Positions 3,862 to 64,000 of a stretch of DNA of 64,000 nucleotides are shown one piece after another. Position 1 is the first letter of the stretch. Each line of letters begins with the position of its first letter. The DNA is taken from positions 1,364,001 to 1,428,000 of the forward strand of contig NZ_AP024202.1 in NCBI RefSeq assembly GCF_021654855.1. Direction: 5' to 3'. Position numbers and translations under genes: made by a program. A model generated the notes under the pieces. That model was not told the origin of the DNA. It searched no databases and was given only the letters and a program-made list of their open reading frames with translations. The DNA comes from Thiomicrorhabdus immobilis. GTDB taxonomy: Bacteria > Pseudomonadota > Gammaproteobacteria > Thiomicrospirales > Thiomicrospiraceae.

Positions 3862-3877
3862 TTACCAGGCCTGGTAA
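3862..3877. repeat. CAGGCCTG-family palindrome, 16-bp intergenic copy
   Basis: TTACCAGG followed by its exact reverse complement CCTGGTAA. It lies just past the rnhB stop, between rnhB and cheV. No T run follows on either strand, so it is not a standard terminator. Confidence 0.9.
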
Positions 3878-3891
3878 TTTTATAAATCCCA

Positions 3892-4509
3892 TTAACACAG
3901 TTCTTTAACTGGTTTGAATGACTTTCTATAACCAGGAATCATGCCAAATTGTTTTAAAGCCGTTAAATGTTTGGCTGTAGGATAACCTTTATGTTGATCA
4001 AAACCGTATTTTGGATATTTTTCATGTAATTCCAACATCTGCCTATCTCGATAGACCTTGGCTAAAATAGAAGCAGCACTGATTTCCATGACCTTGTCAT
4101 CCCCTTTGACAACCGACTGGCAGGAATGAGCAATCTTTGGGCAACGATTGCCATCAACATAAACTTGCGAAATGGCCAAACCTTGTTCAACAAGCCCAGA
4201 CACCGCTCGTTGCATAGCCAACATGGTTGCATGCAGTATATTCAACTCATCAATTTCTTCTGGAGTTGCTACCGCAATGGAATAACCGACAGCTTCCTGT
4301 TTAATTAATTCAGCCAAAGCATCGCGTTTTTTTTCACTGAGTTTTTTGGAATCTCTTAATGGTAGTTCGCAACCAATCGGCAAGATGACGGCACAGGCGA
4401 CAACATCACCAATCAAAGGGCCGCGCCCTACTTCATCAACCCCAACCGTCGTACCACTTAAACTTTGGAAATCGTGGTTTGTCGAATTCTCAAACAGGTT
4501 TTGTTGCAT
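3892..4509 (-). CDS. rnhB: Ribonuclease HII
   Basis: 205 residues; removes ribonucleotides misinserted into DNA and RNA from RNA-DNA hybrids. The catalytic VGVDEVGRG motif is at about residue 23, followed by the conserved VYVDGNRCP aspartate and [12 protein letters not shown]. Length is typical of the family. The ATG lies one base after the lpxB stop, so the two are translationally close. In E. coli dnaE follows rnhB; here transcription instead runs into the palindrome at 3862 and the separate gene cheV. Confidence 0.96.
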
Positions 4510-4510
4510 A

Positions 4511-5686
4511 CTATTTTTTCATCCATTCTTCAATGGCATCAGCGGCCAACTCAGAAGCATTTTGCTTAAGTTGGTGGTATTGATGACGAAACGCATCGAC
4601 CTGACGCTCCCTAAGTTGAGTATCCACAACCAAACGCCCCATATTAAAGGCAATTTTATCCGCAGTCGCATTCTCTTGAATCAATTCAGTCACCAACGGT
4701 TTGTTTGCCAGAATATTCGGCAAGCCTATCCATTGAGTGGTGGCTAAACGCTTCATTAACCAATAAGAAATCGGGTGCACGGCAATCGCCAACACGAGTG
4801 GTTTTTTCATCAATGCACACTCTAAGGTGGCGGTTCCCGAGGTAACCAAAGCCTGATCACAGGCTTCCAATACATCACGAGATTGACCAAGGAAAAGCTT
4901 GATTTTTAAACCCTTTCCAAAAGAGTTGATGGATTGTTGCACACGTTCGAGCGCCTTTTGATGAACACAAGGAATAGCGAATTGCATGGCTGGATAAATA
5001 ATCGCCAATTTCTTTGCCGCTTGTATATAGACATCCGACATTCTCTCGATTTCACTCATTCGTGAACCTGGAAGGATGGCGGTAATGGAGTCGTCAACCG
5101 AAAACCCCAACCGTTGTTTTGCGACACTGGTATTGGGTTCTTCTGGAAATTGGTTGGCAATCGGATGCCCAACAAACTTAACCGGAATGCCATAACGATG
5201 GTAATAATCAGGTTCAAACGGAAACAACACCAAGACACCATCCACAGCCTGTTTGATTTTGGCTAAACGTTTCTCACGCCATGCCCAGACCGAAGGGCCT
5301 ACATAATGAATCGCGGTAATGTTTTTGGACTTTAAAACAGACTCAACTTTGAAATTGAAATCTGGGGCGTCAATGCCGATAAAAACGTTAGGCTGAAGCT
5401 CGATCAGACGCTTAATCAGGTTTTTTCTGATCTTAAGAAGAGACGGTAAGTGTTTGATAACTTCAAAAAACCCCATAACCGAAAGCGCTTCCATCGGAAA
5501 CCAACTTTCAAAACCTTCAGCTATCATCTTAGGCCCGCCGATACCAACAAAACGAGCGTTGGGATAACGTCGTTTCAAGCTACGAACCAAGTCGGCACCC
5601 AAAGTATCACCCGAAGATTCACCTGCTACCATTGCGAAAACAGGTGACATTAGTAATGGAGTTTGTGGATTATCTAACGATGCCAC
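4511..5686 (-). CDS. lpxB: Lipid-A-disaccharide synthase
   Basis: 391 residues; glycosyltransferase family 19 enzyme joining UDP-2,3-diacylglucosamine to lipid X at the inner membrane. Recognised by [37 protein letters not shown] and the [10 protein letters not shown] donor-site motif. The frame starts with GTG at 5686, overlapping the end of lpxA by 17 bases; the ATG at 5650 is an alternative that removes the overlap. Neither has a strong ribosome site, so translation is probably coupled to lpxA. Confidence 0.95.
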
Positions 5687-6437: not shown

Positions 6438-6439
6438 AA

Positions 6440-6874: not shown

Positions 6875-6906
6875 TGTTTTAGTCCAGTAACATTAATTTT
6901 AAATTT

Positions 6907-7938
6907 TTAATTCGAGAGTATATCAATCTGCTTTTGCAGTGCTTTGACTTGTTTGGCCAATTTATCTAATTGGCGAACCCTAACACTGTTTTTTTGCCAA
7001 TCCGATGCCTTAATCGCGGGAAATCCGGCATAAGCCCCCGATTCGGTAATATCGTGGGTAACCCCTGCTTTGGCTAAAAAATGGACATTATCGGTTATTT
7101 CGATATGCCCCGCAAAACCAACCTGTCCGGCAACCGTACAATTTTTACCCAGAACCGTACTACCTGCAAAACCAGCTTGCCCCGCAATTGCCGAGCCTGA
7201 TCCGATTTTGACATTATGGGCTAAATGTACTTGGTTATCGATAATACAGTTGTCTTCGATGATGGTGTCTTCGATAGCCCCTCTATCAACCGTAACATTA
7301 TTTCCGATTGAGACATTATTTCCGATAATAACGCGGCCGACTTGAGGGATTTTAAACCACTGCCCTTGATTGTTAGCCCAACCAAAACCATCCCCACCAA
7401 TAACGGCACCCGCTTCGATGATGACATTATCTCCAAGTGAACAGTGATGGCAAATCGTCGCATTAGAGCCAATACGGCACTGTTTACCTAGGGTTGTAAA
7501 TTCCTCGATGACACAGCCTGCCGCCAAGTAACTACCACTCTCAATCTTAACCCCTTGTTGAACGACAACATTTTCGCCGATATATACGTCATCACCCACT
7601 ATGGCATCTTGGTGAACGACTGCGCTAGGGTGTATAAAATTGGAGGCCGGCTTAAGAGGGTTTAACAACTGGGCAACAAGTGCATAAACGTAATAAGGAT
7701 TATCCACCAATAGATGGGCTACATGGGTAGCATCAACCATCTTTTTATTAAGTATGACCAGGCCTGCCTGGGTTGTTTGAAGATAATCTAGATATTTTTT
7801 ATCTGTTAAAAAAGAGACCTGGTCAGCTCGAGCGTTATCCAAACCAGAAACTTGATTAATCTCTATGGAATCATCACCCACAAAATCATAATCAACCCCA
7901 TTCTCAGCTAGAAAAGCCAGTATTTTATGAAGCTGCAC
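6907..7938 (-). CDS. lpxD: UDP-3-O-(3-hydroxyacyl)glucosamine N-acyltransferase
   Basis: 343 residues; third step of lipid A synthesis, N-acylating the deacetylated intermediate. An N-terminal uridine-binding domain (about 1-100) is followed by hexapeptide repeats (about 105-310, with IIGGDGFGWA and the catalytic histidine region VHLAHNVKIG) and a C-terminal helix. A copy of the CAGGCCTG palindrome lies in its N-terminal third and encodes AGL. It follows skp by 13 bases. Confidence 0.96.
   Translation of the reverse strand: MQLHKILAFLAENGVDYDFVGDDSIEINQVSGLDNARADQVSFLTDKKYLDYLQTTQAGLVILNKKMVDATHVAHLLVDNPYYVYALVAQLLNPLKPASNFIHPSAVVHQDAIVGDDVYIGENVVVQQGVKIESGSYLAAGCVIEEFTTLGKQCRIGSNATICHHCSLGDNVIIEAGAVIGGDGFGWANNQGQWFKIPQVGRVIIGNNVSIGNNVTVDRGAIEDTIIEDNCIIDNQVHLAHNVKIGSGSAIAGQAGFAGSTVLGKNCTVAGQVGFAGHIEITDNVHFLAKAGVTHDITESGAYAGFPAIKASDWQKNSVRVRQLDKLAKQVKALQKQIDILSN
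7759..7766. repeat. CAGGCCTG copy inside lpxD
   Basis: Context GACCAGGCCTGC; read on the coding strand as Ala-Gly-Leu. Confidence 0.85.
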
Positions 7939-7951
7939 TCAGAACCCCAGG

Positions 7952-10927: not shown

Positions 10928-12317
10928 GAGATATTCTTATTACATCATTAAATAAGGCCACAAACGTCAAGCTGACGATAAACATCAACCCAACCGTCTG
11001 TCCAACCACCATTACTCGCTCACTCACCGGTGAACCCTTAATCATTTCGATGAGGTAGTAGACTAAATGCCCCCCATCCAAAACTGGAATTGGTAATAGA
11101 TTTAAAATACCAATACTTAAACTCAATAACCCTACCAAACTTAAAAAAGCCACCAAACCAGTTTGAATTGCCTGCCCTGAAAACTGAGCGATACTGATTG
11201 GTCCCGATAGATTCTTGGTGCTGACCTCGCCTATTATCATGCGCTTAATCATCACGACACTCATAATAAACAGATCCACACTGCGCTGATAAGCCTTCTC
11301 AACCGCATTTAAAAAACCATATTGGATATTCACGGAATATGGTTTAAACGTCTGCTCATCAATCAAAACCCCCACTCCCATCTTGCCGATAGGCGGGCTG
11401 TTTTCTTGCTCGGCTTTCTCAAGCTGCACAAGTGTATCAAAAACAGCTTGGTTGCGTTCAAAGACAACCTGGATAGAAGCCCCAGGATTTGCCTGCACTA
11501 CTTTAACAAAGTCTTGCCAGGACTGAATAGGCTTTTCATTGATTGTTAGGATTTTATCCCCGTTAAGCATACCTGCTTTATCAGCCGGACCCTTCTCGAT
11601 GACCTCACCGATTACAGCCGGAATTAATGGCTTTGCTGGCACAAACCCCAAACGTTCCAACCAATTCTGTTCGGGCTGGTTAATATCAATCGAAGAGAGT
11701 GACACCCCATCAACCTTGATATCTCGACCACCATCAACTTGCTGAAAACTAAAACTGACACGCTGCTCGCCATTAGCCAAAGACTGCAACAACTGTTGAT
11801 GCACCGTTTGCCAACTATAAACATCTACATCATTAACCTTACTGACCACCCAGGCCTGTTGGCTTTCAAAATCAACAATGTTTTGCTGTGCAAGCGCATG
11901 CTGTAACGGAGAACCGGCTATAACACTGTTTGAAATCGGTTTCATTCCGCTTACGCCGACCATATACATGGCCGTAAACGCAAACAGGGCAAAAACCAAG
12001 TTCACAAGCGGTCCGGCAGCCACAACGGCAAAACGTTTGTAAACCGATTGACGGTTAAATGCCCTATCGACATCTTCTGGCGCAACATAATCTTCCCGTT
12101 CGTCAGCGAACTTCACATAGCCGCCTAACGGGATTTGGGCAATCACGAATTCTGTTTCTTGGCCTTTACGACTATAGATAGGCTTACCAAAACCGATTGA
12201 AAACTTAAGCACTTTGATATTGAACCAGCGTGCGACTTGATAGTGCCCCCATTCATGGATAGTGACAATCAAGCCCATGACCACTACGAATCCGAGTAAC
12301 GACCAAACCACACTCAT
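10920..12317 (-). CDS. rseP: Site-2 intramembrane zinc protease RseP
   Basis: 465 residues. The zinc-binding HEWGH sits in the first membrane helix, two PDZ domains occupy roughly 120-310, and the third zinc ligand is in LLPIPVLDGGHLVYY near the C-terminus. RseP cleaves RseA-type anti-sigma factors and remnant signal peptides. No sigma-E or anti-sigma genes are in the window. One CAGGCCTG copy encodes Gln-Ala-Trp in PDZ1. dxr, which often lies beside rseP or frr, is absent from the 61-base gap to cdsA. Confidence 0.95.
   Translation of the reverse strand: MSVVWSLLGFVVVMGLIVTIHEWGHYQVARWFNIKVLKFSIGFGKPIYSRKGQETEFVIAQIPLGGYVKFADEREDYVAPEDVDRAFNRQSVYKRFAVVAAGPLVNLVFALFAFTAMYMVGVSGMKPISNSVIAGSPLQHALAQQNIVDFESQQAWVVSKVNDVDVYSWQTVHQQLLQSLANGEQRVSFSFQQVDGGRDIKVDGVSLSSIDINQPEQNWLERLGFVPAKPLIPAVIGEVIEKGPADKAGMLNGDKILTINEKPIQSWQDFVKVVQANPGASIQVVFERNQAVFDTLVQLEKAEQENSPPIGKMGVGVLIDEQTFKPYSVNIQYGFLNAVEKAYQRSVDLFIMSVVMIKRMIIGEVSTKNLSGPISIAQFSGQAIQTGLVAFLSLVGLLSLSIGILNLLPIPVLDGGHLVYYLIEMIKGSPVSERVMVVGQTVGLMFIVSLTFVALFNDVIRISHG
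11851..11858. repeat. CAGGCCTG copy inside rseP
   Basis: Context ACCCAGGCCTGT; read on the coding strand as Gln-Ala-Trp, a different frame from most coding copies. Confidence 0.8.
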
Positions 12318-13191: not shown

Positions 13192-13922
13192 TATTTATTT
13201 ACCTGCTCGCTTGTTTGGCCAAATCTACGCTCACGTTTAGAAAAAGATTCGATGGCCATATCAAGTTGTTTTTCGTCAAAATCAGGCCAAAGCGCGTCTG
13301 TAAAATAGAGTTCCGCGTAGGCCATTTGCCAAATTAAAAAGTTACTGATTCGCTGTTCACCACCGGTGCGAATCAACAGATCTGGCTCCGGTAAATCAGC
13401 TAAGGCGACAAAATGAGTTAAATCATTTTCACTTAGGTCATGGATTGTTTGAGCTGGGTTGGCAAGTTGCCACTGCTTGACAGCTTCAACGATATCGGCA
13501 CGACCACCATAATTGGCAGCGATACTTAAGACCAGGCCTGTATTGTTTTGAGTCATCTGTTCCGCTAATACAATGTGCTGTTGGATTTCTTCACTAAAAG
13601 CGGAACGATCACCAATAATGCGTAATTGCACATTATTTTCCGAGAGTTTTTTAACCTCTTTTTGCAATGCTTTTAGAAACAATCCCATCAGTTTGTTTAC
13701 TTCATCCTTAGGGCGTTTCCAGTTTTCGGTACTAAAGGCAAACAAGGTCAAAGCTTCGATCCCGATTTCAGAACTATAAGAAACAATGCGTTTAACCGCA
13801 TTCAAACCCTTTTGATGCCCGACAAAACGGGGTAAAAGGCGTTTTTTTGCCCAGCGTCCATTACCATCCATGATAATGGCAATATGTTTAGGCAAATGCG
13901 GGTTTTTAACGATTTCTGACAA
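13191..13922 (-). CDS. uppS: Undecaprenyl diphosphate synthase
   Basis: 243 residues; cis-prenyltransferase making the C55 carrier for peptidoglycan and O-antigen. Motifs: HIAIIMDGNGRWAKKR, FSTENWKRP and LIRTGGEQRISNFL. The start is probably TTG at 13922, which follows GGAG by five bases; an in-frame TTG six codons further upstream would swallow that ribosome site. A terminator hairpin ends about 26 bases upstream, so uppS either has its own promoter or relies on read-through. Confidence 0.93.
   Translation of the reverse strand: MSEIVKNPHLPKHIAIIMDGNGRWAKKRLLPRFVGHQKGLNAVKRIVSYSSEIGIEALTLFAFSTENWKRPKDEVNKLMGLFLKALQKEVKKLSENNVQLRIIGDRSAFSEEIQQHIVLAEQMTQNNTGLVLSIAANYGGRADIVEAVKQWQLANPAQTIHDLSENDLTHFVALADLPEPDLLIRTGGEQRISNFLIWQMAYAELYFTDALWPDFDEKQLDMAIESFSKRERRFGQTSEQVNK
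13533..13540. repeat. CAGGCCTG copy inside uppS
   Basis: Context GACCAGGCCTGT; read on the coding strand as Thr-Gly-Leu. Confidence 0.85.
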
Positions 13923-13947
13923 AACAACTCCAAGAAACAAATAAAAA

Positions 13948-16425: not shown

Positions 16426-16463
16426 TTTTTAAATCCTTATTTAAAGAAAATTTAATTAAATTT

Positions 16464-16493
16464 GGCCTGGTAAACAAAGCTACCAGGCCTGGT
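16464..16493. repeat. rpsB-tsf intergenic hairpin made from CAGGCCTG units
   Basis: A full ACCAGGCCTGGT (16482-16493) plus an inverted partial copy GGCCTGGTA (16464-16472) pair as a nine-base stem with an eight-base loop. No proper T run follows, so it is more likely a stability or attenuation element than a full terminator. Confidence 0.8.
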
Positions 16494-16509
16494 TTCTTAC
16501 GTAATTAAA

Positions 16510-18392: not shown

Positions 18393-21035
18393 ATGACGGA
18401 TAACGCCAGCATACCCAGCTTTATACAATCGCTATTGAATGAGGAAATCCCTCTTTTTGAAAAGATAAAGCTCGGTAGAGAGGTGTTATCCCGTTTCAGC
18501 AACTACCAATTCGACCAGTTTGAAAAAGGTGCCGCTGTTTCTGAGCTGATAAAAGAAAGATCCACATTCATTGACCAATTTCTAAAGAAAATCTGGCAAA
18601 CCTTAATTCCTGAAAACGCCGGCACCTTGATTGCAGTTGGTGGTTATGGACGCGGAGAGCTTCACCCCTATTCAGATATAGACATTCTCATTTTGTGTGA
18701 CGAAGTCAAACAAAACCAGGAGGAGCTTAGCCGTTTCATTACCTTTTTATGGGATTTAGGCTTTGATGTAGGACACGCTATCCGTACCATAGAGGATTGT
18801 AAGGTAGCAGGCTTAGAGGATGTTTCTACAGCAACCAATCTACTTGAATCACGCTGGTTGACTGGGGATTACGAACGTTTTCAAAAACTGCAAAAAATCT
18901 GGAACGACACGCCCATCTTCTGGGAACGTAAAGAATTTTTCAAAGCCAAGGTTAAGGAACAAAAAAAGCGTCATCAACGCTTTAATGACACCATCTACCA
19001 GCTTGAACCCAATATCAAGGAAAGCCCTGGTGGACTGCGCGACATTCAAACGATTTACTGGGTGGCAAAACGCCACTTCAACGCCAACTCAATCAATGAA
19101 CTGGTACAGAGAAACTTTTTAACCACCGAAGAGTTCCTCGAAATCGAAGCCGCCTATAAATTCCTAAACCGTGTTCGATTCGCATTACAGCACAGTAAAA
19201 GACGCCGAGAAGATCGATTGCAATTCGATTCTCAACAGTCTATCGCCGAGAGCTTCGGTTACAGCAACAATGATGAAAAGATGGCTGTCGAGCAGTTTAT
19301 GAGCAGCTATTATCGCAATGTGCATAATGTCGTAAAGTTGAATGAAATATTGTTACAGCATTTCCGTGAAGTTCTGTTTGATGATGAAAACACGGAAATC
19401 AAACCGATAAATACCCACTTCAATATTGTTAACAACTATCTAGACATTGCCCATCCCAAAGTCTTTTTAAAGAACCCTACCGCTTTACTAGAGTCATTCA
19501 TCATATTAGAAACACTTCCCGAACTTGAAGGCTTGCGCTCCAACGCCATCCGCTCGATACGCGACCACCTCTATTTGATCGATGACAATTTCCGTAAAGA
19601 CCCCATAAACAAAGCGTTGTTCATGGAGATTTTCAGGCAGCCCAGCGGGGTCAATGCCGCCGTGAAACGTATGCATAAATACGGGGTTTTGAGTGAATAC
19701 TTACCGGTATTTAAAAAAATCACCGGTTTGATGCAGTTCAATATCTTCCATGCCTATACGGTAGATGACCACACCATTTTAGTCATCCGCAATTTAAGAC
19801 GCTTTTTTGTTGACAAATTCACCTACGAATTTCCAACGGCTCATCAAATAGCCAAAAACCTTTGCAAACCTGAAATTTTATTTTTAGCCGGATTGTTTCA
19901 CGATATCGCCAAAGGCCGTAACGGTGCACACGAAGTTTTAGGGGCCATAGATGCATTAGAGTTTGCCGAAACCCATAACCTTTCTAAAAAAGATGGCGAG
20001 ATGATCAGTTGGTTGGTGCGCTATCATCTAGACTTCTCCAGTATTGCCCAAAAGAAAGACTTATCGGATCCTGCCGTGATTCAACATTTTTCCAAACTTG
20101 TTGGAGACCAAGAGCATTTAGACTACCTTTACCTGCTGACGGTAGCCGATGTCTGCTCTACCTCCGCCGATGTCTGGAACGATTGGAAAAACTCCTTGTT
20201 TTTAGAGCTGTATGACGAAACCTCAAAAGCGCTCGCCTTAAGTATCAATACACCTAAAGACCGACAGAAGAAAGCTTTGCAAACCCAAGAAAAATCAAGA
20301 GAAATCCTTGCCAAGCGCGGTATCGCATCCGTCGAATTCAACAACCTCTGGAAAAGCTTTGCCAACAGTGATTTCTTTAGTAAACAGAACCCGAACGAAG
20401 TCGCCCGCATCACCAAACTCCTCTATCAATGCAATCACGAAGAAAGCCATATTTTCTTAGAAGAACAATCTCAACGTGGTGCCTCGGAACTGATTATCTA
20501 CATGCCGGATAGAGACTACCTGTTTGCCTATATCGCCAATGCATTGGACTCTTTAGGTACCGACGTGGTGGAGGCTCGAATTTTCAGTAGCACCGACCAT
20601 ATGACGTTGGTGATGATCTACTTCCTGAATAGAGATACCCACGACTACTTGGATAAAAGCCGCCATTTCGAGGTGATTGATAAGATTAGAACCCAACTTA
20701 CTCGAGATGAAATTGAACCACTAGATACAACTAGCATGCTGAAAAATCGTCGCACCAGGCACTTTGATACCCCAACCGAGATACTGTTCACTCAAATCAA
20801 TGATTCATTGACTGAACTGAGCATCACCACTAAAGACTCACCAGGCCTGCTCGCTCGAATTGGCTGTGCCTTAAAGACTGAAAACATTCGCTTACACGAT
20901 GCCAAAATCCATACGGTCGGTGAAAAAGCGGAAGACGTGTTTTTAATCAGCAACACCCAAAACCAAGGAATAAAGAGCAAGGAACGTCAAACCAAGTTAA
21001 CCGAAGCGCTACTTGAAATGATTGAACGTGAATAG
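18393..21035 (+). CDS. glnD: Bifunctional PII uridylyltransferase / uridylyl-removing enzyme
   Basis: 880 residues; senses glutamine and (de)uridylylates PII. Domains: nucleotidyltransferase (about 85-200, VGGYGRGELHPYSDIDILIL), PII-UTase linker helices, HD domain (about 490-600, LFHDIAKGRNGAHE) and two C-terminal ACT domains (about 690 and 805). A CAGGCCTG copy encodes Pro-Gly-Leu in the last ACT domain. No PII gene is nearby. Confidence 0.96.
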   Translation: MTDNASIPSFIQSLLNEEIPLFEKIKLGREVLSRFSNYQFDQFEKGAAVSELIKERSTFIDQFLKKIWQTLIPENAGTLIAVGGYGRGELHPYSDIDILILCDEVKQNQEELSRFITFLWDLGFDVGHAIRTIEDCKVAGLEDVSTATNLLESRWLTGDYERFQKLQKIWNDTPIFWERKEFFKAKVKEQKKRHQRFNDTIYQLEPNIKESPGGLRDIQTIYWVAKRHFNANSINELVQRNFLTTEEFLEIEAAYKFLNRVRFALQHSKRRREDRLQFDSQQSIAESFGYSNNDEKMAVEQFMSSYYRNVHNVVKLNEILLQHFREVLFDDENTEIKPINTHFNIVNNYLDIAHPKVFLKNPTALLESFIILETLPELEGLRSNAIRSIRDHLYLIDDNFRKDPINKALFMEIFRQPSGVNAAVKRMHKYGVLSEYLPVFKKITGLMQFNIFHAYTVDDHTILVIRNLRRFFVDKFTYEFPTAHQIAKNLCKPEILFLAGLFHDIAKGRNGAHEVLGAIDALEFAETHNLSKKDGEMISWLVRYHLDFSSIAQKKDLSDPAVIQHFSKLVGDQEHLDYLYLLTVADVCSTSADVWNDWKNSLFLELYDETSKALALSINTPKDRQKKALQTQEKSREILAKRGIASVEFNNLWKSFANSDFFSKQNPNEVARITKLLYQCNHEESHIFLEEQSQRGASELIIYMPDRDYLFAYIANALDSLGTDVVEARIFSSTDHMTLVMIYFLNRDTHDYLDKSRHFEVIDKIRTQLTRDEIEPLDTTSMLKNRRTRHFDTPTEILFTQINDSLTELSITTKDSPGLLARIGCALKTENIRLHDAKIHTVGEKAEDVFLISNTQNQGIKSKERQTKLTEALLEMIERE
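20842..20849. repeat. CAGGCCTG copy inside glnD
   Basis: Context CACCAGGCCTGC; encodes Pro-Gly-Leu. Confidence 0.85.
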
Positions 21036-21050
21036 AAAACCGAAGCCAAC

Positions 21051-21066
21051 TGACCAGGCCTGGTCA
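21051..21066. repeat. CAGGCCTG-family palindrome, 16-bp copy after glnD
   Basis: TGACCAGG followed by its exact complement CCTGGTCA, 15 bases past the glnD stop, between convergent glnD and the VOC gene. Only a weak AT-rich stretch follows, so terminator activity is uncertain. Confidence 0.9.
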
Positions 21067-24772: not shown

Positions 24773-24786
24773 GACCAGGCCTGGTC
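24773..24786. repeat. CAGGCCTG-family palindrome, 14-bp intergenic copy
   Basis: GACCAGG plus exact complement CCTGGTC, six bases after the stop of the small membrane protein gene. Confidence 0.9.
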
Positions 24787-25511: not shown

Positions 25512-26939
25512 TCAACGCCCCCTATTCCAAATATAAACTACATAAACCGCCAAAGAGACAATCACCATTGGCCAGAGATTCTCTTCTGAAACGAGGTTTG
25601 AAGCAAACACCACAATAATCGCAACCGGTGTAATCCATTTCAAAACCACTAAGAAAAGTTTCATCATCCCAGCTGTTAAGGATAACTCTTGCTGACGGGT
25701 TTCATCTTTAAAGACCCAAGCGACAAACACCGCCATTAACAGCCCGCCTAAAGGCAACATAATATTAGCGGTGATAAAATCGATTGAATCAAAGAAAGTC
25801 CTATCCGCCAAGAAGTGAACATCAGCCCATTCATTGAAAGAAAGAACCGTTCCGATACCGATAAACCAAATTAAACCGCCCAATATCCAAGCCGCCTTGG
25901 TACGCTTGATCCCCCAGTTTTGATCAAACCAGCTCACTGCGGGTTCAATCAAGGAAATTGAAGAACTGAAAGCCGCCATAATCACCAAGGCAAAAAACAA
26001 AGTCCCAAAAAACCATCCCCCGGTCATTTCACCAAATGCGACTGGTAAGGTTTGAAACAGTAATCCTGGCCCTGCTCCCGGCTCTAAACCATTGGCAAAT
26101 ACAATTGAGAAGATGACCAGGCCTGCCAATAAAGCCACCGCGGTATCGGCAAAAGCGATCCACAACCCCGCTTTGACAATAGAATAGTCTTTTTGCAGAT
26201 AAGAGCCATAAACCATCATGGTTCCCAAACCGATACTTAAGGTAAAAAAGGCATGGCCCATGGCAATCAAGACCGCTTGCCAAGTCAATTTGGAAAAGTC
26301 TGGTGCAAACAAAAAGTTAAAACTTTGAGCAAATGCCCCTGTGGTGGTGGCATACCCCAATAAAACCAATAAAATCAAAAATAGACCGGGCATCATAAAG
26401 TTAATGGCTTTTTCAATTCCGCTCTTAACCCCTTTAGAGACCACAATCACCGTAAACAAACTCACCAGCGTATGCCAAAAAAGCAGTTCGAAAGGGTTGG
26501 CCAACAAATGACTAAAATGCTCACCGACACCTTTGGCATCAATACCAATGAACCCGCCTTGTAGACTTTCTACAAAATAGGCAACCGCCCAACCTGCAAT
26601 CACGGTGTAAAAAGAGAGGATTAAAGCACCTGCCAAAACGCCATTGAAACCCAATAAAGTCCATAAACGACTGGCACCATTCTCTCTAGCGATATTCGCC
26701 ATGGCTTGTACTGGGTTGGCTTTTCCTGAACGTCCCATAGCCAATTCTGAAAACAGCACTGGAATACCAATCAACAAAATACACGCCAAGTAAACAAGTA
26801 CAAACGCGCCGCCGCCATTTTCTCCAGTTATGTAAGGAAATTTCCATAAATTACCCAAACCAACAGCGGAACCGACAGCGGCCATAATAAAAACCGTTTG
26901 AGACGACCAATAATCTTTAGAAAGTTTTAACTGGCTCAT
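25512..26939 (-). CDS. Sodium-dependent NSS/SNF-family transporter
   Basis: 475 residues with about 11-12 membrane segments and a LeuT-type N-terminus: FIMAAVGSAVGLGNLWKFPY and GGGAFVLVYL hold the sodium-site residues. Bacterial members carry amino acids or similar solutes with sodium. Substrate is not readable from the sequence. A CAGGCCTG copy encodes Ala-Gly-Leu in a middle membrane helix. Divergent from murB with a 53-base gap. Confidence 0.9.
   Translation of the reverse strand: MSQLKLSKDYWSSQTVFIMAAVGSAVGLGNLWKFPYITGENGGGAFVLVYLACILLIGIPVLFSELAMGRSGKANPVQAMANIARENGASRLWTLLGFNGVLAGALILSFYTVIAGWAVAYFVESLQGGFIGIDAKGVGEHFSHLLANPFELLFWHTLVSLFTVIVVSKGVKSGIEKAINFMMPGLFLILLVLLGYATTTGAFAQSFNFLFAPDFSKLTWQAVLIAMGHAFFTLSIGLGTMMVYGSYLQKDYSIVKAGLWIAFADTAVALLAGLVIFSIVFANGLEPGAGPGLLFQTLPVAFGEMTGGWFFGTLFFALVIMAAFSSSISLIEPAVSWFDQNWGIKRTKAAWILGGLIWFIGIGTVLSFNEWADVHFLADRTFFDSIDFITANIMLPLGGLLMAVFVAWVFKDETRQQELSLTAGMMKLFLVVLKWITPVAIIVVFASNLVSEENLWPMVIVSLAVYVVYIWNRGR
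26118..26125. repeat. CAGGCCTG copy inside the NSS transporter gene
   Basis: Context GACCAGGCCTGC; encodes Ala-Gly-Leu on the coding strand. Confidence 0.85.
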
Positions 26940-31004: not shown

Positions 31005-31018
31005 GACCAGGCCTGGTC
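31005..31018. repeat. CAGGCCTG-family palindrome, 14-bp copy between convergent genes
   Basis: GACCAGG plus exact complement CCTGGTC. On the minus strand it is followed at once by CGTTTTTT, so it may terminate the permease operon; a second AAAAAACG/CGTTTTTT pair flanks it. Confidence 0.85.
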
Positions 31019-43261: not shown

Positions 43262-44200
43262 TCAATTTTCCAAATAACCTTCTAATCGTTTAAACCAGCC
43301 CGCCAACCACCTTGTTTCATCCCTTTCTGGCGGAGCTAAACGTGCCCTTAAAGCCAAACGTGATTTAGCCGACAACACAAATTCACTCAACAACGTATCA
43401 GTTGAAATTGAATCAAATTGTTCGTCCTTTATCTGCATGGCATCCAGCACGGAAAACAAGCCCCAACCTTGCCCTTGATAGTTTTCTTGCTGACTGCCAA
43501 ACCCTTTAAAATTGACATAATCAATCAAGGCAAAACGCCCTTGTTTAGTTTCTGCCAGGCGCCCTACCAGCTTAGTGTAATATTCTTGTTTATTTACTCT
43601 ATAAGGCTGCAACAACGCTTTGGCAAAACGTTTTTGAAAGCGTTGGACAATAAACTCGGCCTGATAAGCTTGTGTGTCTAACAACCAATCTCTTAAAGCC
43701 TTTAATTCCATAGATGACCAGGCCTGGTCAAACTGTTTTTTGCTTTGCCAAGGCGCATTGAAAGGCTCGAGTTGTTGTAAAAAAAACGGGGCTTTTTGGT
43801 AATGGTTCACGTAATTCACCATTTCGGGAAAGGTTTCATCAAAGGTTTGGGCAACACCTGTTGGATACCAAATGAAATGGCCGATCCCAAAAGAGGGAAA
43901 ATCCTCACCGTTGCCCCAATAGGTTAGATATTCCGGTTTGGAGGCACACTCGTTTTGAAATATCCTGTTGCCGATCCATAAGGTTTCCTGTGGACTGAGT
44001 TGACCAATGGAAACCGTTGTCGTTTCTTTGGCATAAACCGTTGTGGAAACCATAACGAAAGCACCAAGAATAAAACGCAAACTGTATCTGAAAAAGACGT
44101 TGAAAACCGTAAAAACCAGCTTGTTCGAACAACGTGGATTCAACGTTACCAGGCCTGGCAGCGTTGAATGAAGGTGAAATAAATCATGATTCAAACGCAT
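43262..44200 (-). CDS. Putative exported protein, possibly lysozyme-like
   Basis: About 312 residues from the ATG at 44200; TTG at 44218, overlapping the GST stop, is an alternative. A hydrophobic segment (FILGAFVMVSTTVYA) near residue 45 suggests an export signal after an unusually long N-terminal region. The domain IFQNECASKPEYLTYWGNGE followed by FPSFGIGHFIWYP resembles the catalytic Glu plus GxGH spacing of T4-type lysozymes; this is inference. Other blocks are IDYVNFKGFGSQQENYQGQG and ALRARLAPPERDETRWLAGW. I know it only as a conserved uncharacterised protein. Confidence 0.6.
   Translation of the reverse strand: MRLNHDLFHLHSTLPGLVTLNPRCSNKLVFTVFNVFFRYSLRFILGAFVMVSTTVYAKETTTVSIGQLSPQETLWIGNRIFQNECASKPEYLTYWGNGEDFPSFGIGHFIWYPTGVAQTFDETFPEMVNYVNHYQKAPFFLQQLEPFNAPWQSKKQFDQAWSSMELKALRDWLLDTQAYQAEFIVQRFQKRFAKALLQPYRVNKQEYYTKLVGRLAETKQGRFALIDYVNFKGFGSQQENYQGQGWGLFSVLDAMQIKDEQFDSISTDTLLSEFVLSAKSRLALRARLAPPERDETRWLAGWFKRLEGYLEN
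43715..43730. repeat. CAGGCCTG-family palindrome, 16-bp coding copy
   Basis: TGACCAGG plus exact complement CCTGGTCA inside the exported-protein gene, encoding Gln-Ala-Trp in frame. A full-length copy despite being in coding DNA. Confidence 0.9.
44150..44157. repeat. CAGGCCTG copy near the 5' end of the exported-protein gene
   Basis: Context TTACCAGGCCTGGC; encodes Pro-Gly-Leu if translation starts at 44200. Confidence 0.8.
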
Positions 44201-44214
44201 CAAACAAACACGAA

Positions 44215-53186: not shown

Positions 53187-53392
53187 AACTATTATTCTCC
53201 AATTAATTTGCAGGCTATTTTAACGTATTAACAAAACGCTAACCTACAAAATAGAGCATCGATTTAAGAATACTACGTTGACAACAAGCGTTAGCAAAAC
53301 AACAGCGAAACACTAATTTCAAAAGAACGGTGGAAAAATCCTGAAATATCCAATACCGTTATAGCAATACAGGTGGATTAATCAGGCCTGCT

Positions 53393-56484: not shown

Positions 56485-56508
56485 AAAGCTACCAGGCCTG
56501 GTAGCTTT
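56485..56508. terminator. 24-bp perfect CAGGCCTG-centred palindrome acting as terminator
   Basis: AAAGCTACCAGG followed at once by its exact complement, with an A run on the left and Ts on the minus strand after the stem. It lies between the convergent cytochrome b and hemJ genes and ends hemJ transcription; it may work both ways. Confidence 0.92.
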
Positions 56509-58164: not shown

Positions 58165-58447
58165 CATATTCGGTTATAACCGTTTCATAGCACTAAGCCC
58201 CGCCTCTCTGGGGCTTTTTCATACTTAGATTTCGATAGAACAGCCAGTTGCACCTAAAAAATACATCGCCAAGAATCCTCTTATCAGCTAACCCATACCG
58301 TATAAGCCGCAAACCGTTTCTAGCCCGATGCACACAAGCCCACTCTTTCTTATAGACAACTATTAAATACCTTTATTTTCAATCCCCCGCAAGCCGAGTA
58401 AAATCACCTCCTACCTTTACTTTACTTGAAAGAGCGGAAATTTGATT

Positions 58448-59545
58448 ATGGAGAATCAGACCCTTGCCAAATTAGGCAATATTAATGAACCTTATCTTGG
58501 TAAGACACTAAAAGAATTGGATGCCCTCTCTTTTGCAGATAAGTTAATGACCATAACCCTGCCTTACCCGGCCAAAGGCAACGAAGCGGCAATTTCTCAA
58601 GCTATCCGCCAAATAATTGGCGAGGACTCTCATTCACAAATCGCATTTGAATATCAGATACGCCCTTCGGCAAGAGTTTCTGCAGAACAACCAGGCCTGG
58701 CCAATATCAAAAACATTATTGCGGTCTCTTCTGCAAAAGGGGGGGTCGGTAAATCCACGGTTACCGCCAACCTGGCTTTGGCCTTACAAGCCGAAGGGGC
58801 AAAAGTAGGTGTGTTAGACGCCGATTTATATGGTCCAAGCCAAGCTAAAATGTTTGGTATCGATGATTTACGCCCTGAAATCAACGGTGACAAAATCAAA
58901 CCGATTAAAGCCCACGGAATCGAAATCGCCACCATCGCCAACCATATCACTCGTGAATACACTCCGCTGATTTGGCGTGGAGCGCAGTTGGATTCGGCGT
59001 TAAAAACCCTTTTGTTTAACACGGAATGGCCAGAACTGGATTATCTGGTGATTGACATGCCTCCAGGAACAGGAGATGTTCAACTGACCATTTCCCAGCA
59101 GATTCCAGTATCCGGTGCGGTGGTGGTCTCCACTCCGCAGGAGATTGCATTGCTGGATGCCAAAAAAGGGCTAAAGATGTTCCACCAGGTGGACGTTCCA
59201 GTATTGGGAGTGGTTGAAAACATGAATATGTTCATTTGTCCTAAATGCGGTCATGAAGAACATATCTTCGGTCATGATGGTGCGCAACTGATGTCTTTGC
59301 AATACATGGTCAACTTCTTAGGTTCTTTGCCGTTAGACAAACGTATTCAGGAGGAGACCGACAGCGGTAAACCGACTGTCATGGCTGAGCCGGAATCTAA
59401 GATTGCCCTTAACTTTAGAGAAATTGCACGCAAGGTGGCTTCGGCTCTATATATACAAGACAGTCAAGCTCCGGTGGTTCCGCAGACGGAAGAGCAGCTT
59501 AAAGCTCAGTCATCCAATCAAAAAACCATCCAATGGAATATTTAA
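58448..59545 (+). CDS. apbC: Iron-sulfur cluster carrier ApbC/Mrp
   Basis: 365 residues. N-terminal MIP18-like segment, then a deviant Walker A SSAKGGVGKSTVTANLALAL, VLDADLYGPSQ, DMPPGTGDVQLT and the CxxC of MFICPKCGHEE that binds a bridging cluster. P-loop ATPase delivering Fe-S clusters. A CAGGCCTG copy encodes Pro-Gly-Leu. ATG at 58448 is preferred; TTG at 58442 is possible. Confidence 0.93.
   Translation: MENQTLAKLGNINEPYLGKTLKELDALSFADKLMTITLPYPAKGNEAAISQAIRQIIGEDSHSQIAFEYQIRPSARVSAEQPGLANIKNIIAVSSAKGGVGKSTVTANLALALQAEGAKVGVLDADLYGPSQAKMFGIDDLRPEINGDKIKPIKAHGIEIATIANHITREYTPLIWRGAQLDSALKTLLFNTEWPELDYLVIDMPPGTGDVQLTISQQIPVSGAVVVSTPQEIALLDAKKGLKMFHQVDVPVLGVVENMNMFICPKCGHEEHIFGHDGAQLMSLQYMVNFLGSLPLDKRIQEETDSGKPTVMAEPESKIALNFREIARKVASALYIQDSQAPVVPQTEEQLKAQSSNQKTIQWNI
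58692..58699. repeat. CAGGCCTG copy inside apbC
   Basis: Context AACCAGGCCTGGCC; encodes Pro-Gly-Leu. Confidence 0.85.
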
Positions 59546-59680: not shown

Positions 59681-60343
59681 TTACAGCCATTTCGATAAAA
59701 AACCTCGCCTATCCAATACTTCATTTTCATCAACCGCAATACCATCTTCGGTATTGTCTTTGGCTTGTTGTTCGGCTAATTGCCTAGCCGCCAATTCCTG
59801 CTCGACTTTTTCATAATGCGCTTTTCTGAAAGCTATCACCTCCGACCAAGCGGCAAAGGCTTTTTCATTATCCGCATACTTATCCATGATTTGCACCAAA
59901 GGCTGTAATAGATAATGGCCTAATTCAACGTGATAATTCAAATAGCCCTTTTGCTCAGCCCCGCCAATTTCAAACGTCTTTAAAGGCCCAATCACCATAT
60001 AATCTTGATCAAGCCTTGCTTGAGCTTGCCACTCTTCCTCAATTTGCAAATCTTCCGTTAATTCAGCTAGAACCGGTACATAGAGATTGCACAACATCCA
60101 AGGTGTAAGTAAGAACCCGGTAATCCATCCATCCACAAATTTCACGCCACGTAACTCAACCTCAAGATTGTGATTGACCCCCATCCACTCATCCTCAAAA
60201 TTTTTATGATAAGTGTTTTTGAAGGTGTCGATAATCAAGTCATGCGCCTCTTGTAAGGTTTTGGCTTGAATGAATTGCCAATCAGACTGACCAGGCCTGG
60301 TTGGTTGGTTGATTTCGCTTTTTTGGCTTGAATTTGACATCAT
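59681..60343 (-). CDS. HybE/HupJ-like assembly chaperone
   Basis: 220 residues. The core FVDGWITGFLLTPWMLCNLY matches the GxWxGxxxTPWM block of [NiFe]-hydrogenase chaperones HybE/HupJ, with GYLNYHVELGHYLLQPL downstream. The C-terminus has LDRRGFLSKWL, resembling a twin-arginine core. Coupled to the TorD-like gene by a four-base overlap. No hydrogenase is in the window; it more likely helps the molybdoenzyme or its Fe-S subunit (inference). Confidence 0.7.
   Translation of the reverse strand: MMSNSSQKSEINQPTRPGQSDWQFIQAKTLQEAHDLIIDTFKNTYHKNFEDEWMGVNHNLEVELRGVKFVDGWITGFLLTPWMLCNLYVPVLAELTEDLQIEEEWQAQARLDQDYMVIGPLKTFEIGGAEQKGYLNYHVELGHYLLQPLVQIMDKYADNEKAFAAWSEVIAFRKAHYEKVEQELAARQLAEQQAKDNTEDGIAVDENEVLDRRGFLSKWL
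60292..60299. repeat. CAGGCCTG copy inside the HybE-like gene
   Basis: Context GACCAGGCCTGGTT; encodes Arg-Pro-Gly, a third reading frame. Confidence 0.85.
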
Positions 60344-60855: not shown

Positions 60856-60925
60856 ATACTTTCCTTAGTTTTTGAGTCAACCGAACTCAATTCGGTTGAT
60901 TCTTAAAACCTCATTCTAAATGCAT

Positions 60926-60950
60926 AAAAGCACCCAACTTGAGTGCTTTT
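60926..60950. terminator. Terminator after the PsrABC-like operon
   Basis: AAAAGCAC and GTGCTTTT pair with a nine-base loop. A second hairpin, TCAACCGAA with TTCGGTTGA (60877-60899), sits just beside it. They separate the NrfD gene from torD. Confidence 0.75.
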
Positions 60951-61004
60951 AGATAATTAAGGGTAAAGCGAATTTAGTTTAGCTTAAATTAAACTCACTT
61001 AACT

Positions 61005-61934: not shown

Positions 61935-61937
61935 AAT

Positions 61938-62759
61938 TTACGCCTCCTCTCTCAATAAGTCTGTTATTTGCGCATTTGGTGTGTTCGCAAATGGGCTATT
62001 GGCGTCAAAAGCCGCATGATGCTCGGTGTGTCCGTGCATATCCTCATTCTGTTTACGTTCGAATGTTGTGCCGTTTTCACCCCCCATCGGATGCAAACCA
62101 CCTTCTGATTTTTGGCCATTGAAGGTGCCACGTTCAAAATGCACCGTCTGCTTTTTAACCGGAATATAGTAAACATTGGGTTTTGTGCCTAAATGGGCCA
62201 TTAAGGGTTCTGCAATTCCAGAGTTGATGATTTGCGTCACCGGATCGTTTGGATTATCCAAGTCAGCAAACTGACGAGCATTCCCCACACAGGTTTCCAC
62301 ACAAGCCGGTAAACGGTTGTCTTCAACTCGGTCACGACAGAAGTTACATTTATCGACCCCTGGACGTGTTTTTTTCAGGGTTTCTTCACCAAATACCGCT
62401 TTCTTCTCGGTATTGTCATCGTAATCCAATGCATAACGGGCATCGTATGGGCAAGCCAAGGTACAGGCTTGACAGCCCATACACATATCGTCATCGACAT
62501 CGACAATCCCGTTATCCATCTTGTAAGTCGCACCCGTTGGGCAAACCGTTACACAAGGAGGGTTATCGCAGTGGTTACATAAGCGCGGGAAGAAAACTCG
62601 CATGGCATCTTCATCGCTCTTACCCTTAGAAATATCATGTACCTGAGTACGCCATTTATCAGACCAGAACGGCGTTTGGTTTTCTACCGCACACGCCGCC
62701 ATACAAGCGTTACAGCCAGTACAAGTGTTTAGGTCAATTAACATTGCATAATGAGCCAT
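61938..62759 (-). CDS. Four-cluster [4Fe-4S] electron-transfer subunit (PsrB/DmsB type)
   Basis: 273 residues with four cysteine groups: CTGCNACMAAC, CNHCDNPPCVTVCP, CMGCQACTLACP and CNFCRDRVEDNRLPACVETC. This is the dimeric ferredoxin fold of molybdopterin oxidoreductases. The C-terminal fifty residues are histidine-, asparagine- and glutamate-rich and lack clusters. Passes electrons between the catalytic subunit and NrfD protein. Confidence 0.93.
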   Translation of the reverse strand: MAHYAMLIDLNTCTGCNACMAACAVENQTPFWSDKWRTQVHDISKGKSDEDAMRVFFPRLCNHCDNPPCVTVCPTGATYKMDNGIVDVDDDMCMGCQACTLACPYDARYALDYDDNTEKKAVFGEETLKKTRPGVDKCNFCRDRVEDNRLPACVETCVGNARQFADLDNPNDPVTQIINSGIAEPLMAHLGTKPNVYYIPVKKQTVHFERGTFNGQKSEGGLHPMGGENGTTFERKQNEDMHGHTEHHAAFDANSPFANTPNAQITDLLREEA

Positions 62760-62771
62760 CCGTGACCTCCT

Positions 62772-64000
62772 TTAAACTTTTTCAACTTTGATAGTGAATT
62801 CTTGCGAACGGAAACCGGCCACCACTGGATCGACCTTGTAACCAATCACTTTATTGATTGCACTACCAAAACCAACTGCTCGGCTTAAGGCCGCGTTTTC
62901 CGTTCCGAAAGAGGAATACATAAAGACCGACTCTGGCTGAACTTGGTTGGTCACATAGGCTTTACCATCGACATTCAAGCTTTCATCTTCCAGGTTGGTG
63001 ATTTTAATTTTGTCACCGGTTTTGATATTCAACTTATCCGCACGGGTTGGGTTAATCCAAATACCGGTGTAAATGTCTTCTTTGAATGTATTGATGGCCG
63101 ACAATACCGGGTTGTTGGCGTTGGTAGAGCCATGCGAAACCGTCGGTGACTTACCATAAGTGAAGTAGAATTCACCGTCACCCAACATGCGGTCTTGTAA
63201 GACTTTCTCACCCAAAATCCCCGATGGGAAATGGGTGGCCAACACACCAAAGTTAGGCGCACGGGTTGTGCTGTTACCACGTATCATTTCAAATAAGCCT
63301 GAATAGAACTCGATACGTCCAGACTTGGTTGGTACGGGCATTTTTTGAGGCATGGCCGCTTCTTCAAGCAGTTCATCCATGGTTTTGATGTAATAAACCC
63401 CTTTTTCACGCAACACTTTCTCAAAAGTTTCCGGCGTTTCACCCACTTCATGTGCCGCATGTTCCATGCTCACACGGCGGTAAGCCGCCGCGATAGGTGC
63501 TGCTGTGCCCTTAGCTTGTTCTTCGGCCACATACTTTTTGGCTTTTTCGGCTGACAGGCCTGCTAGGTTATCGATGGTTTGATAATAGGCTTCAACCCCA
63601 GCTTTACCTGAAATGATTTCTGTCATTTTGAACATCACATCGGTCACTTCTTGGGTATCGTATAAAGGGTCAATCGCTTTGAAACGAGTGGTCAAACCTA
63701 AATCTTGGTTCACCCCGTTGCCGTAAACACCCGGTTCGTCACGCTCTAGATAAGTCGAGTTTGGAAGAATGACATCGGCATAAGCGGTGGTATCAGAAGG
63801 TAAAACATCCATACAGACCACACAACTGACGTTTTCATGGTTTAGCATCTCTTTCCAGTAAGAGTCCGGGAAATAGTGATGTACCGGGTTAGCGCCATTG
63901 ATGAAGAATGCTTTGGTGAGGTATTTTTCACCCTTGTACTCCACCTCACCACGAACCGATTCAAACAGACCGGTATCGGCCATGACCGGTAAAGAGACCC
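62772..64000 (-). CDS. Molybdopterin oxidoreductase catalytic subunit (C-terminal part)
   Basis: About 409 residues of the C-terminal half; the frame stays open through the right edge, so the N-terminus with Tat signal and first cluster is outside the window. Visible are FINGANPVHHYFPDS, DVLPSDTTAYADVILPNSTY followed by LERDEPGVYGNG, and the MopB C-terminal domain (GIWINPTRADKLNIKTGDKI). It resembles polysulfide/thiosulfate reductase PsrA/PhsA; sulfite dehydrogenase SoeA or TtrA cannot be excluded. Confidence 0.82.
   Translation of the reverse strand, partial: VSLPVMADTGLFESVRGEVEYKGEKYLTKAFFINGANPVHHYFPDSYWKEMLNHENVSCVVCMDVLPSDTTAYADVILPNSTYLERDEPGVYGNGVNQDLGLTTRFKAIDPLYDTQEVTDVMFKMTEIISGKAGVEAYYQTIDNLAGLSAEKAKKYVAEEQAKGTAAPIAAAYRRVSMEHAAHEVGETPETFEKVLREKGVYYIKTMDELLEEAAMPQKMPVPTKSGRIEFYSGLFEMIRGNSTTRAPNFGVLATHFPSGILGEKVLQDRMLGDGEFYFTYGKSPTVSHGSTNANNPVLSAINTFKEDIYTGIWINPTRADKLNIKTGDKIKITNLEDESLNVDGKAYVTNQVQPESVFMYSSFGTENAALSRAVGFGSAINKVIGYKVDPVVAGFRSQEFTIKVEKV
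63555..63562. repeat. CAGGCCTG copy inside the molybdoenzyme gene
   Basis: Context GACAGGCCTGCT; encodes Ala-Gly-Leu. Confidence 0.8.

What the first reader, a model, noticed from the sequence alone, without database searches (positions are those of the whole stretch)
3862..63562. Highly over-represented palindrome ACCAGGCCTGGT (core CAGGCCTG)
Seen by eye: 22 copies of CAGGCCTG in 64 kb, with first bases at 3866, 7759, 11851, 13533, 16484, 20842, 21055, 24776, 26118, 31008, 31718, 32556, 35199, 36156, 39635, 43719, 44150, 53393, 56493, 58692, 60292 and 63555. A hand estimate at about 42% GC gives roughly 0.5 expected. Most extend to ACCAGGCCTG(G)(T), some to 14-24 bases. Seven are intergenic although noncoding DNA is a small part of the window. 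The coding copies use all three frames (GL in 11, QAW in 3, RPG in 1), so selection is on DNA rather than on a peptide. Candidates: a DNA uptake sequence of a competent cell, a HIP1-like methylation or repair element, or a nucleoid-organising site.
Basis: partly seen in the sequence, partly recalled or inferred. Interest (0 to 1): 0.88.

Follow-up and report, generated by a model that had tools for sequence, protein, structure and literature searches.

The report
Palindromic DNA-uptake-type sequence with dialects
A short mirror-symmetric DNA word is scattered about 800 times through this bacterial genome, changes its spelling between related species and is missing from others, much like the 'self' tags that let some bacteria take up DNA of their own kind.

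Summary
In detail: 22 copies of CAGGCCTG in 64 kb (shuffle mean 0.68), 812 in the 2.54-Mb genome against 7 for the reversed word. The full element is about 24 bp, AAA-N-Y-N-ACCAGG|CCTGGT-N-R-N-TTT. Copies lie mainly after genes (convergent gaps 2.64/kb, same-direction 1.09, inside genes 0.22, divergent gaps 0.17; 16 genomes). Gene-internal copies keep the flanks without pairing; intergenic copies add hairpin pairing. Gene-internal copies are conserved above background in close relatives.

Within one genus the motif comes in dialects (ACC-, AAC-, AGC-, TACCGG-type; one asymmetric with inverted pairs), which replace one another in the same gap, and some lineages lack it. In 365 genomes outside the family the 12-mer occurs 0-5 times. 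Methylase families PF00145 and PF01555 are absent from this genome.

Best explanation: it works like a DNA uptake (self-recognition) sequence of natural transformation, unusually palindromic. Uptake and receptor are not shown; one candidate pilin failed a presence/absence test. Rivals: HIP1-like methylation element, nucleoid-protein site, terminator family.

The parts
3866..3873 (.). CAGGCCTG in TTACCAGGCCTGGTAA; intergenic, same-direction genes
7759..7766 (.). CAGGCCTG in GACCAGGCCTGCCT; inside gene 6907-7938
11851..11858 (.). CAGGCCTG in CCCAGGCCTGTT; inside M50 peptidase gene 10920-12317 (QAW); exact in 11 of 18 aligned relatives
13533..13540 (.). CAGGCCTG in GACCAGGCCTGTA; inside gene 13191-13940
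16484..16491 (.). CAGGCCTG in CTACCAGGCCTGGTT; intergenic between tsf and rpsB; 15 of 22 relatives with this gap carry a copy in their own or a mixed dialect
20842..20849 (.). CAGGCCTG in CACCAGGCCTGCT; inside the glnD-type gene
21055..21062 (.). CAGGCCTG in TGACCAGGCCTGGTCA; convergent intergenic
24776..24783 (.). CAGGCCTG in CGACCAGGCCTGGTCA; intergenic, same-direction genes
26118..26125 (.). CAGGCCTG in GACCAGGCCTGCC; inside SNF-family transporter gene 25512-26939
31008..31015 (.). CAGGCCTG in AAAAAACGACCAGGCCTGGTCA; convergent intergenic
31718..31725 (.). CAGGCCTG in AACCAGGCCTGCT; inside ABC permease-like gene 31048-31944 (QAW)
32556..32563 (.). CAGGCCTG in AACAGGCCTGTT; inside gene 31848-32771
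35199..35206 (.). CAGGCCTG in GACCAGGCCTGCTG; inside SBP_bac_5 gene 34689-36227
36156..36163 (.). CAGGCCTG in AACCAGGCCTGCT; second copy inside SBP_bac_5 gene 34689-36227
39635..39642 (.). CAGGCCTG in AGCCAGGCCTGGT; inside gene 39188-40090
43719..43726 (.). CAGGCCTG in GACCAGGCCTGGTC; inside gene 43262-44218 (QAW; G020 has its own dialect here, giving QAG)
44150..44157. CAGGCCTG in TTACCAGGCCTGGC; intergenic by my caller, inside a TTG-start ORF
53383..53390 (.). CAGGCCTG in AATCAGGCCTGCT; divergent intergenic gap
56493..56500 (.). CAGGCCTG in AAAGCTACCAGGCCTGGTAGCTTT; convergent intergenic, perfect 24-bp palindrome (two-way terminator shape)
58692..58699 (.). CAGGCCTG in AACCAGGCCTGGCC; inside ParA/NUBPL-type ATPase gene 58442-59545
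60292..60299 (.). CAGGCCTG in TGACCAGGCCTGGTT; inside gene 59681-60343 (Arg-Pro-Gly frame)
63555..63562 (.). CAGGCCTG in TGACAGGCCTGCT; inside molybdopterin oxidoreductase-type gene 62772-63983

Best explanation
The word is the core of a 24-bp near-palindromic element (A-tract, Y, ACCAGG|CCTGGT, R, T-tract) that works as a DNA uptake (self-recognition) sequence of natural transformation. A surface DNA receptor prefers DNA carrying it; preferred uptake and recombination drive copies into the chromosome, where they settle where harm is least (after genes, in tolerant codons, seldom in promoter gaps) and are co-opted as terminator hairpins between genes. When the receptor's taste drifts the genome follows and a dialect arises; when it is lost the copies decay. 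Shown by computation: the element, its density, placing, conservation, dialects, patchy presence and lineage restriction. Inferred: that its reader is an uptake receptor, that it reads the dyad symmetrically, and the drive itself.
For: Density 812 per 2.54 Mb, control 7. Lineage-bound: 12-mer 446 / 181 / 660 in three family genomes, 0 in two (G026, G297), 0-5 in the 365 non-family genomes of the 370 searched. Dialects in related species at about 0.2-0.4 copies per kb, with the A-tract in the same register in G000, G005, G017, G020 and G023; G020's dialect is asymmetric and forms 4 close inverted pairs. Same gap, different dialect: 15 of 22 relatives between tsf and rpsB, the 7 without all motif-poor. 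At one coding site G020 carries its own dialect, giving QAG where six of eight aligned relatives have QAW. Convergent 2.64, codirectional 1.09, genic 0.22, divergent 0.17 per kb over 16 genomes. Extended motif kept inside genes without pairing. Genic sites of G000 exact in G030 10 of 13 against 8.4% of other 8-mers. Motif-poor genomes fall in several places of the BamA tree. ComEC in 35 of 39 family genomes.
Against: No transformation or uptake data for this organism in anything I read. No receptor found: the orphan pilin is absent (no hit of 40% identity or more) from motif-rich G009, G017, G018, G027, G033 and G035 and present in motif-poor G003. ComEC is as common in motif-poor genomes, so loss of the motif does not track loss of competence genes. 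Single-mutant copies of the 8-mer are not in excess (178 seen, 185 expected in 7 genomes), whereas in Neisseriaceae one-off copies outnumber exact ones (PMC3630211). Known DUS/USS are directional; this one is palindromic in most genomes sampled. The A-tract is missing in G035 and weak in G036. Conservation of genic sites is not significant for G018 (1 of 5) and G017 (2 of 9). G000 has 5 copies in divergent gaps. No foreign island was available to test depletion.
Confidence: 0.7

Rival explanations
1. A HIP1-like element: an orphan methyltransferase modifies the palindrome (AGGCCT or CAGGCCTG), and methylation-directed repair creates and maintains the sites.
For: Palindromic, GC-rich, replaced by other palindromes in some relatives, as Elhai describes for cyanobacteria (PMC4390886).
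Against: No PF00145 and no PF01555 methylase in G000; PF00145 is in 16 of 37 and PF01555 in 12 of 37 family genomes, without following the motif. The asymmetric dialect of G020, A-tracts 10-12 bp from the dyad and the strong 3'-end placing are not expected. Other methylase classes (PF02384, PF07669, PF02086) were not searched.
Confidence: 0.1
2. Binding site of an abundant chromosome-organising (nucleoid or segregation) protein whose specificity drifts between species.
For: A symmetric 24-bp site with A-tracts one helical turn from the centre suits a dimer that bends DNA; even spread (20-kb counts mean 5.9, variance 4.8); few decayed copies.
Against: No regional clustering in 21 sampled 20-kb pieces; asymmetric dialect in G020; 17 of 31 same-genus genomes have few copies (two of them, G020 and G023, carry another dialect), unlikely for an essential organiser.
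Confidence: 0.12
3. A family of intrinsic terminators with a stereotyped hairpin, acting at RNA level only.
For: Convergent and post-stop placing; intergenic copies show extra complementarity at -3 to -5 (0.51/0.63/0.49 against 0.31/0.41/0.27 expected) and stronger folds.
Against: 332 of 539 copies in 16 genomes lie inside genes; the genic copies of G000 keep A-tract and Y(-4) against genic near-sites (P 4e-9 and 6e-12, both flanks of each site counted) with no pairing.
Confidence: 0.05
4. Operator of a global transcription factor.
For: Palindrome of operator length.
Against: Divergent gaps hold only 8 copies in 46.0 kb (0.17 per kb) and 62% of copies lie inside genes.
Confidence: 0.03

Closest known systems
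DNA uptake sequence (DUS) of Neisseriaceae, receptor ComP
   Same: High copy number, clade-wise dialects with a short invariant core, copies inside genes and in terminators; in Simonsiella 1294 copies are arranged as overlapping dyads, from which the authors consider dimer recognition (PMC3630211).
   Different: Here the unit itself is palindromic in most species; A-tract flanks; one-off copies not in excess; no ComP-like pilin common to all carriers was found; gammaproteobacteria.
Uptake signal sequence (USS) of Pasteurellaceae, receptor proposed ComN/PpdA
   Same: Strict inner core plus AT-rich tracts, terminator use, dialects (PMC12616744; PMC7811141; PMC1852404).
   Different: USS is not palindromic and is unrelated in sequence; its two AT-rich regions lie downstream on one side, here the tracts flank both sides in G000 and one side in G020.
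HIP1 and alternate HIPs of cyanobacteria
   Same: Highly iterated GC-rich palindrome replaced by other palindromes in some lineages (PMC4390886).
   Different: No cognate methylase in the two families searched; asymmetric dialect; 3'-end preference; about 320 per Mb here against roughly 500-2500 per Mb there.

Membership tests
DUS/USS (uptake sequences) | Raises uptake or transformation of DNA that carries it | not testable with these tools
   needs cells; therefore not filed as a proven member, only as working like one
DUS/USS (uptake sequences) | Hundreds to thousands of copies spread over the chromosome | tested here: met
   812 copies; 20-kb counts near Poisson
DUS/USS (uptake sequences) | Clade-specific dialects and lineage restriction | tested here: met
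DUS/USS (uptake sequences) | Enriched after genes and in terminators, present inside genes too | tested here: met
DUS/USS (uptake sequences) | Carrier has transformation machinery | tested here: met
   ComEC (PF03772) in G000 and 35 of 39 family genomes, motif-poor ones included; prepilin-type N_methyl genes in 36 of 37, which include type II secretion pseudopilins. Other competence genes not searched
DUS/USS (uptake sequences) | Dedicated receptor pilin that follows the motif | tested here: inconclusive
   one candidate tested by presence/absence and failed; PF12019 (GspH) gave no hit in G000; the other pilins were not tested
DUS/USS (uptake sequences) | Single-mutant copies in excess, as in Neisseriaceae (usual, not strictly defining) | tested here: not met
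   8-mer: 178 seen, 185 expected in 7 genomes; 12-mer: mutants nearly all at the outer two positions
HIP elements | Methylase able to modify the palindrome in the genome | tested here: inconclusive
   PF00145 and PF01555 absent from G000; other classes not searched
HIP elements | Palindromic | tested here: inconclusive
   yes in G000 and most relatives sampled, no in G020
Intrinsic terminators | RNA hairpin plus T-tract after genes | tested here: inconclusive
   16 of 53 intergenic and 4 of 84 genic copies of G000 fold at -10 kcal/mol or below with at least 4 T of 8 beside them

The most novel reading that the evidence does not exclude
A third, independent uptake-sequence system in bacteria, in which the cell surface reads a 24-bp dyad symmetrically (a receptor pair or dimer), with palindromic, shifted-palindrome and asymmetric dialects in one genus and repeated loss: a natural series showing how self-recognition in transformation is built, drifts and dies.
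Probability: 0.45. Interest if true: 0.85.

Novelty: new variant of a known kind. Interest (0 to 1): 0.75.

Why it matters
The papers I read name uptake sequences in two families only, Neisseriaceae and Pasteurellaceae. A third family with palindromic units, dialects and several lineages without the motif inside one genus would let one test how receptor and motif coevolve, whether recognition is by dimers, and whether such motifs are drive or adaptation. It could also give a handle for transforming these bacteria.

Tried and rejected
Orphan pilin as receptor: orthologs at 53% identity or more in G000, G003, G004, G005, G008, G015, G020, G021, G025 and G030, but not in motif-rich G009, G017, G018, G027, G033, G035 (hits there are 29% or less or none; G036 34%). 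The stretch just upstream of glmS in G009, G017, G018, G027 and G007 holds no pilin; the other location (beside xerC and hslV) was not looked at in these genomes. Rejected as a universal receptor.

The pilin stretches turned out to be a type II secretion pseudopilin cluster, judged by gene order from the G000 copy. PF12019 found nothing in G000. The PilA-like clusters differ in layout among genomes without an evident link to the motif (judged by eye). Methylases PF00145 and PF01555: no enzyme shared by the motif-rich genomes. Foreign-DNA gap: the largest gap between the first 100 sites (to 315 kb) is one 5,282-aa ORF, so no depletion test. Other motifs in motif-poor genomes: none above noise in G003, G013, G014, G019, G024, G026, G028 (33-114 kb each); G031's top word is a local 9-bp tandem repeat. 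Naming the organism: the genome-contig scan gave no match above 60% identity, plasmid searches nothing, so the family name (sulfur-oxidising Thiomicrospiraceae such as Thiomicrorhabdus) is only my guess from memory; signatures of RuBisCO, a carboxysome protein and NiFe hydrogenase were not found in the held stretches, which neither supports nor excludes it.
Full report
Observation. CAGGCCTG occurs 22 times in the window (shuffle mean 0.68; order-2 Markov 0.63) and 812 times in the complete 2,539,444-bp chromosome, while the reversed control word occurs 7 times. In 424 kb of sampled chromosome there are 125 copies of the 8-mer (4.6 expected) and 85 of CCAGGCCTGG (0.3 expected). Counts in 21 pieces of 20 kb have mean 5.9 and variance 4.8, i.e. 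an even spread.

Anatomy. Aligned on the dyad, 125 copies of G000 show A (84%) and C (81%) before CAGG, a pyrimidine at -4 (86%) and an A-tract at -6 to -8 (60, 58, 47% A against 29%). The tracts are on both sides and not anticorrelated (r 0.17). Half-sites alone are not enriched: 179 of 194 ACCAGGCC continue with TG. In G000, single mutants of the 12-mer are found at the outer two positions (30 copies) and at position 4 (4), none at positions 3, 5 and 6, beside 70 exact copies; in six relatives pooled, 29 at the outer two positions and 0, 2, 2 and 1 at positions 3 to 6, beside 58 exact. For the 8-mer in seven genomes, 231 exact copies stand beside 178 one-off copies where 185 are expected. 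So the inner core is read strictly, the outer bases loosely, and decayed copies are rare. The last point differs from Neisseriaceae, where one-off copies outnumber exact ones (PMC3630211, section read).

Placing. By a simple gene caller of mine, 76 of 125 copies in G000 lie in genes and 49 between them although 87.6% of the sequence is coding; of the 49, 16 are in convergent, 27 in codirectional, 5 in divergent gaps and 1 unassigned. Pooled over 16 motif-bearing genomes (1,719 kb; CAGGCCTG, or the own word of G020 and G023): 332 genic (0.22 per kb), 136 in codirectional gaps (1.09), 56 in convergent gaps (2.64), 8 in divergent gaps (0.17), 7 unassigned; six control palindromes together gave 102 genic, 1 codirectional, 0 convergent, 0 divergent, 1 unassigned. 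Intergenic copies of G000 show extra complementarity outside the 12-mer, as terminator stems do; genic copies show none. Yet genic copies keep the extended element against genic near-sites: Y at -4 in 83% versus 50%, A at -6 to -8 in 46% versus 29% (84 exact, 108 near; both flanks of each site counted). The 13 intergenic near-sites lie between (73%, 49%) and may be decayed copies. The element is therefore recognised as DNA and used secondarily as a terminator.

Relatives. Of 31 same-genus genomes, 14 carry 236-1173 copies of CAGGCCTG and 17 carry 3-74; of five genomes of other genera of the family, three carry 409-840 and two carry 7-10; 21 further genomes of the class carry 0-222, with controls of 0-91. 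The 12-mer is the cleaner probe: in 370 gammaproteobacterial genomes it numbers 446, 181 and 660 in three family members, 0 in two (G026, G297), and 0-5 in the other 365, of which 86 have at least one. Samples of 14-134 kb per relative and 456 kb of G000 show dialects: ACC-type in G000, G009, G015, G018, G021, G027, G030, G033, G036; AAC- and AGC-type in G005, G008, G017, G025; ACC and AGC together in G035; TACCGG|CCGGTA in G023 (ACCGGCCGGT 46 times in 134 kb, CAGGCCTG none); and in G020 the asymmetric AACAGGCCGGG (25 in 114 kb) with an A-tract on the AAC side and four inverted pairs under 60 bp apart. Measured from the dyad, the A-tract begins at 10 nt and a T or pyrimidine stands at 8 nt in G000, G005, G017, G020 and G023. 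In G035 no A-tract is seen and in G036 it is weak. Motif-poor genomes G003, G013, G014, G019, G024, G026 and G028 show no other dominant word in 33-114 kb each.

Turnover. Of eight window gaps with a copy, the clearest is the one between tsf and rpsB (16426-16509; names): 15 of 22 relatives with that gap carry a copy in their own or a mixed dialect, and the seven without are all motif-poor. In another (3759-3891) 9 of 21 do, and motif-rich G005, G018 and G036 are among those without; the place inside the gap differs, so copies come and go. In a coding site (43719) six of eight aligned relatives have CAGGCCTG encoding QAW, and G020 has GAACAGGCCGGGTCC, encoding QAG; that QAW is older is my inference. 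Genic sites of G000 are exact in G030 10 of 13, G015 7 of 13, G009 6 of 11, G021 6 of 10, where 7-11% of the other 8-mers of the same genes are; in G027 3 of 9, G005 3 of 11, G025 3 of 10, G017 2 of 9 (P 0.064), G018 1 of 5 (P 0.2), where 4-6% are; in motif-poor G003 and G014 and in G020 0 of 10, 0 of 9, 0 of 11. On a BamA tree of 33 genomes (midpoint root) the motif is in the outer genera and early branches of the genus, and the label 'CAGGCCTG-rich' needs 4 changes (shuffled mean 11.3, 0 of 500 as low; G020, G004 and G023 counted as poor). Losses or shifts fall in the clade of G028, G012, G001, G022, G016, G029; in the weakly held group of G023, G014/G031, G019/G026 and G013/G024; in G003; and in G020/G004.

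Mechanism. Density, lineage restriction, dialects, patchy loss, post-gene placing with terminator use, strict inner core plus AT tracts, and inverted pairs of the asymmetric form are together what is described for DUS and USS (PMC3630211, one section and passages; PMC12616744, abstract and passages; PMC1852404, passages; PMC7811141, passages; PMC13020248, passages). ComEC is present in 35 of 39 family genomes, motif-poor ones included; N_methyl prepilin genes are in 36 of 37, pseudopilins of type II secretion among them. An orphan pilin with a well conserved C-terminal half (9 of the 10 orthologs aligned) occurs in eight motif-bearing genomes, in G004 (whose dialect I infer from its closeness to G020) and in motif-poor G003, but is missing from at least six motif-rich ones. 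I therefore say that the element works like an uptake sequence, not that it is a proven one.

Rivals. A methylation element like HIP1 (PMC4390886: two sections whole and the first of three parts of the discussion) would need a methylase: PF00145 and PF01555 have no member in G000; other classes were not searched. A nucleoid-type protein cannot be excluded; dialects, losses and the asymmetric form speak against it. A pure terminator family is refuted by the genic copies.

Prior work; 848 papers hold the letters CAGGCCTG, of which only the 15 listed were seen, none about such a motif by title. Uptake sequence with Thiomicrospira or Hydrogenovibrio: no paper; listings only, 15 of 62, 15 of 66, 2 of 2, 1 of 1 and 20 of 50 papers seen, none on uptake sequences in this family by title and abstract. 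The survey papers searched inside do not hold 'Thiomicrospira' (or, 'Thiomicro'). The library holds open-licence papers only, so this is no proof of absence. That the organism belongs to Thiomicrospiraceae is a guess from memory; no call names it.

Noticed in passing
L237:1495-2010 (G000:C1:553,227-553,742): Orphan pilin gene in front of a glmS-like gene with two CAGGCCTG copies 23 bp apart upstream; in G003, G005, G020, G025 the ortholog lies between genes that look like xerC and hslV (names by eye). C-terminal half well conserved.
   Followed up: partly
L034-L036 (G015:C1:1309000-1368999): MITE-like element of about 200 bp with inverted ends containing GTGCAAAGGTCTC, five paired copies in 60 kb.
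   Followed up: no
G000:C1:130221-146069 (L226, L130): One open frame of 5,282 aa with higher GC (up to 55%) and no motif copy: a very large protein, adhesin-like by its size only.
   Followed up: no
L114 (G031), near its 3' end: Nine-bp tandem repeat CGGCTCTTT, about 11 units, explains the top word of that genome.
   Followed up: yes
window: CGATCG is absent (13.5 expected by order-2 Markov, 4.2 by the maximal-order estimate) and AGATCT and GTCGAC are rare, while CGATATCG and CATCGATG are in excess: possible restriction avoidance.
   Followed up: no
L180 (G015:C2:231001-246000): 11 CAGGCCTG copies in 15 kb of the 443-kb second contig, so it carries the motif too.
   Followed up: no
L148 (G029), L147 and L223 (G028): Runs of C (CCCCCCC and longer) are in excess in these motif-poor genomes.
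   Followed up: no
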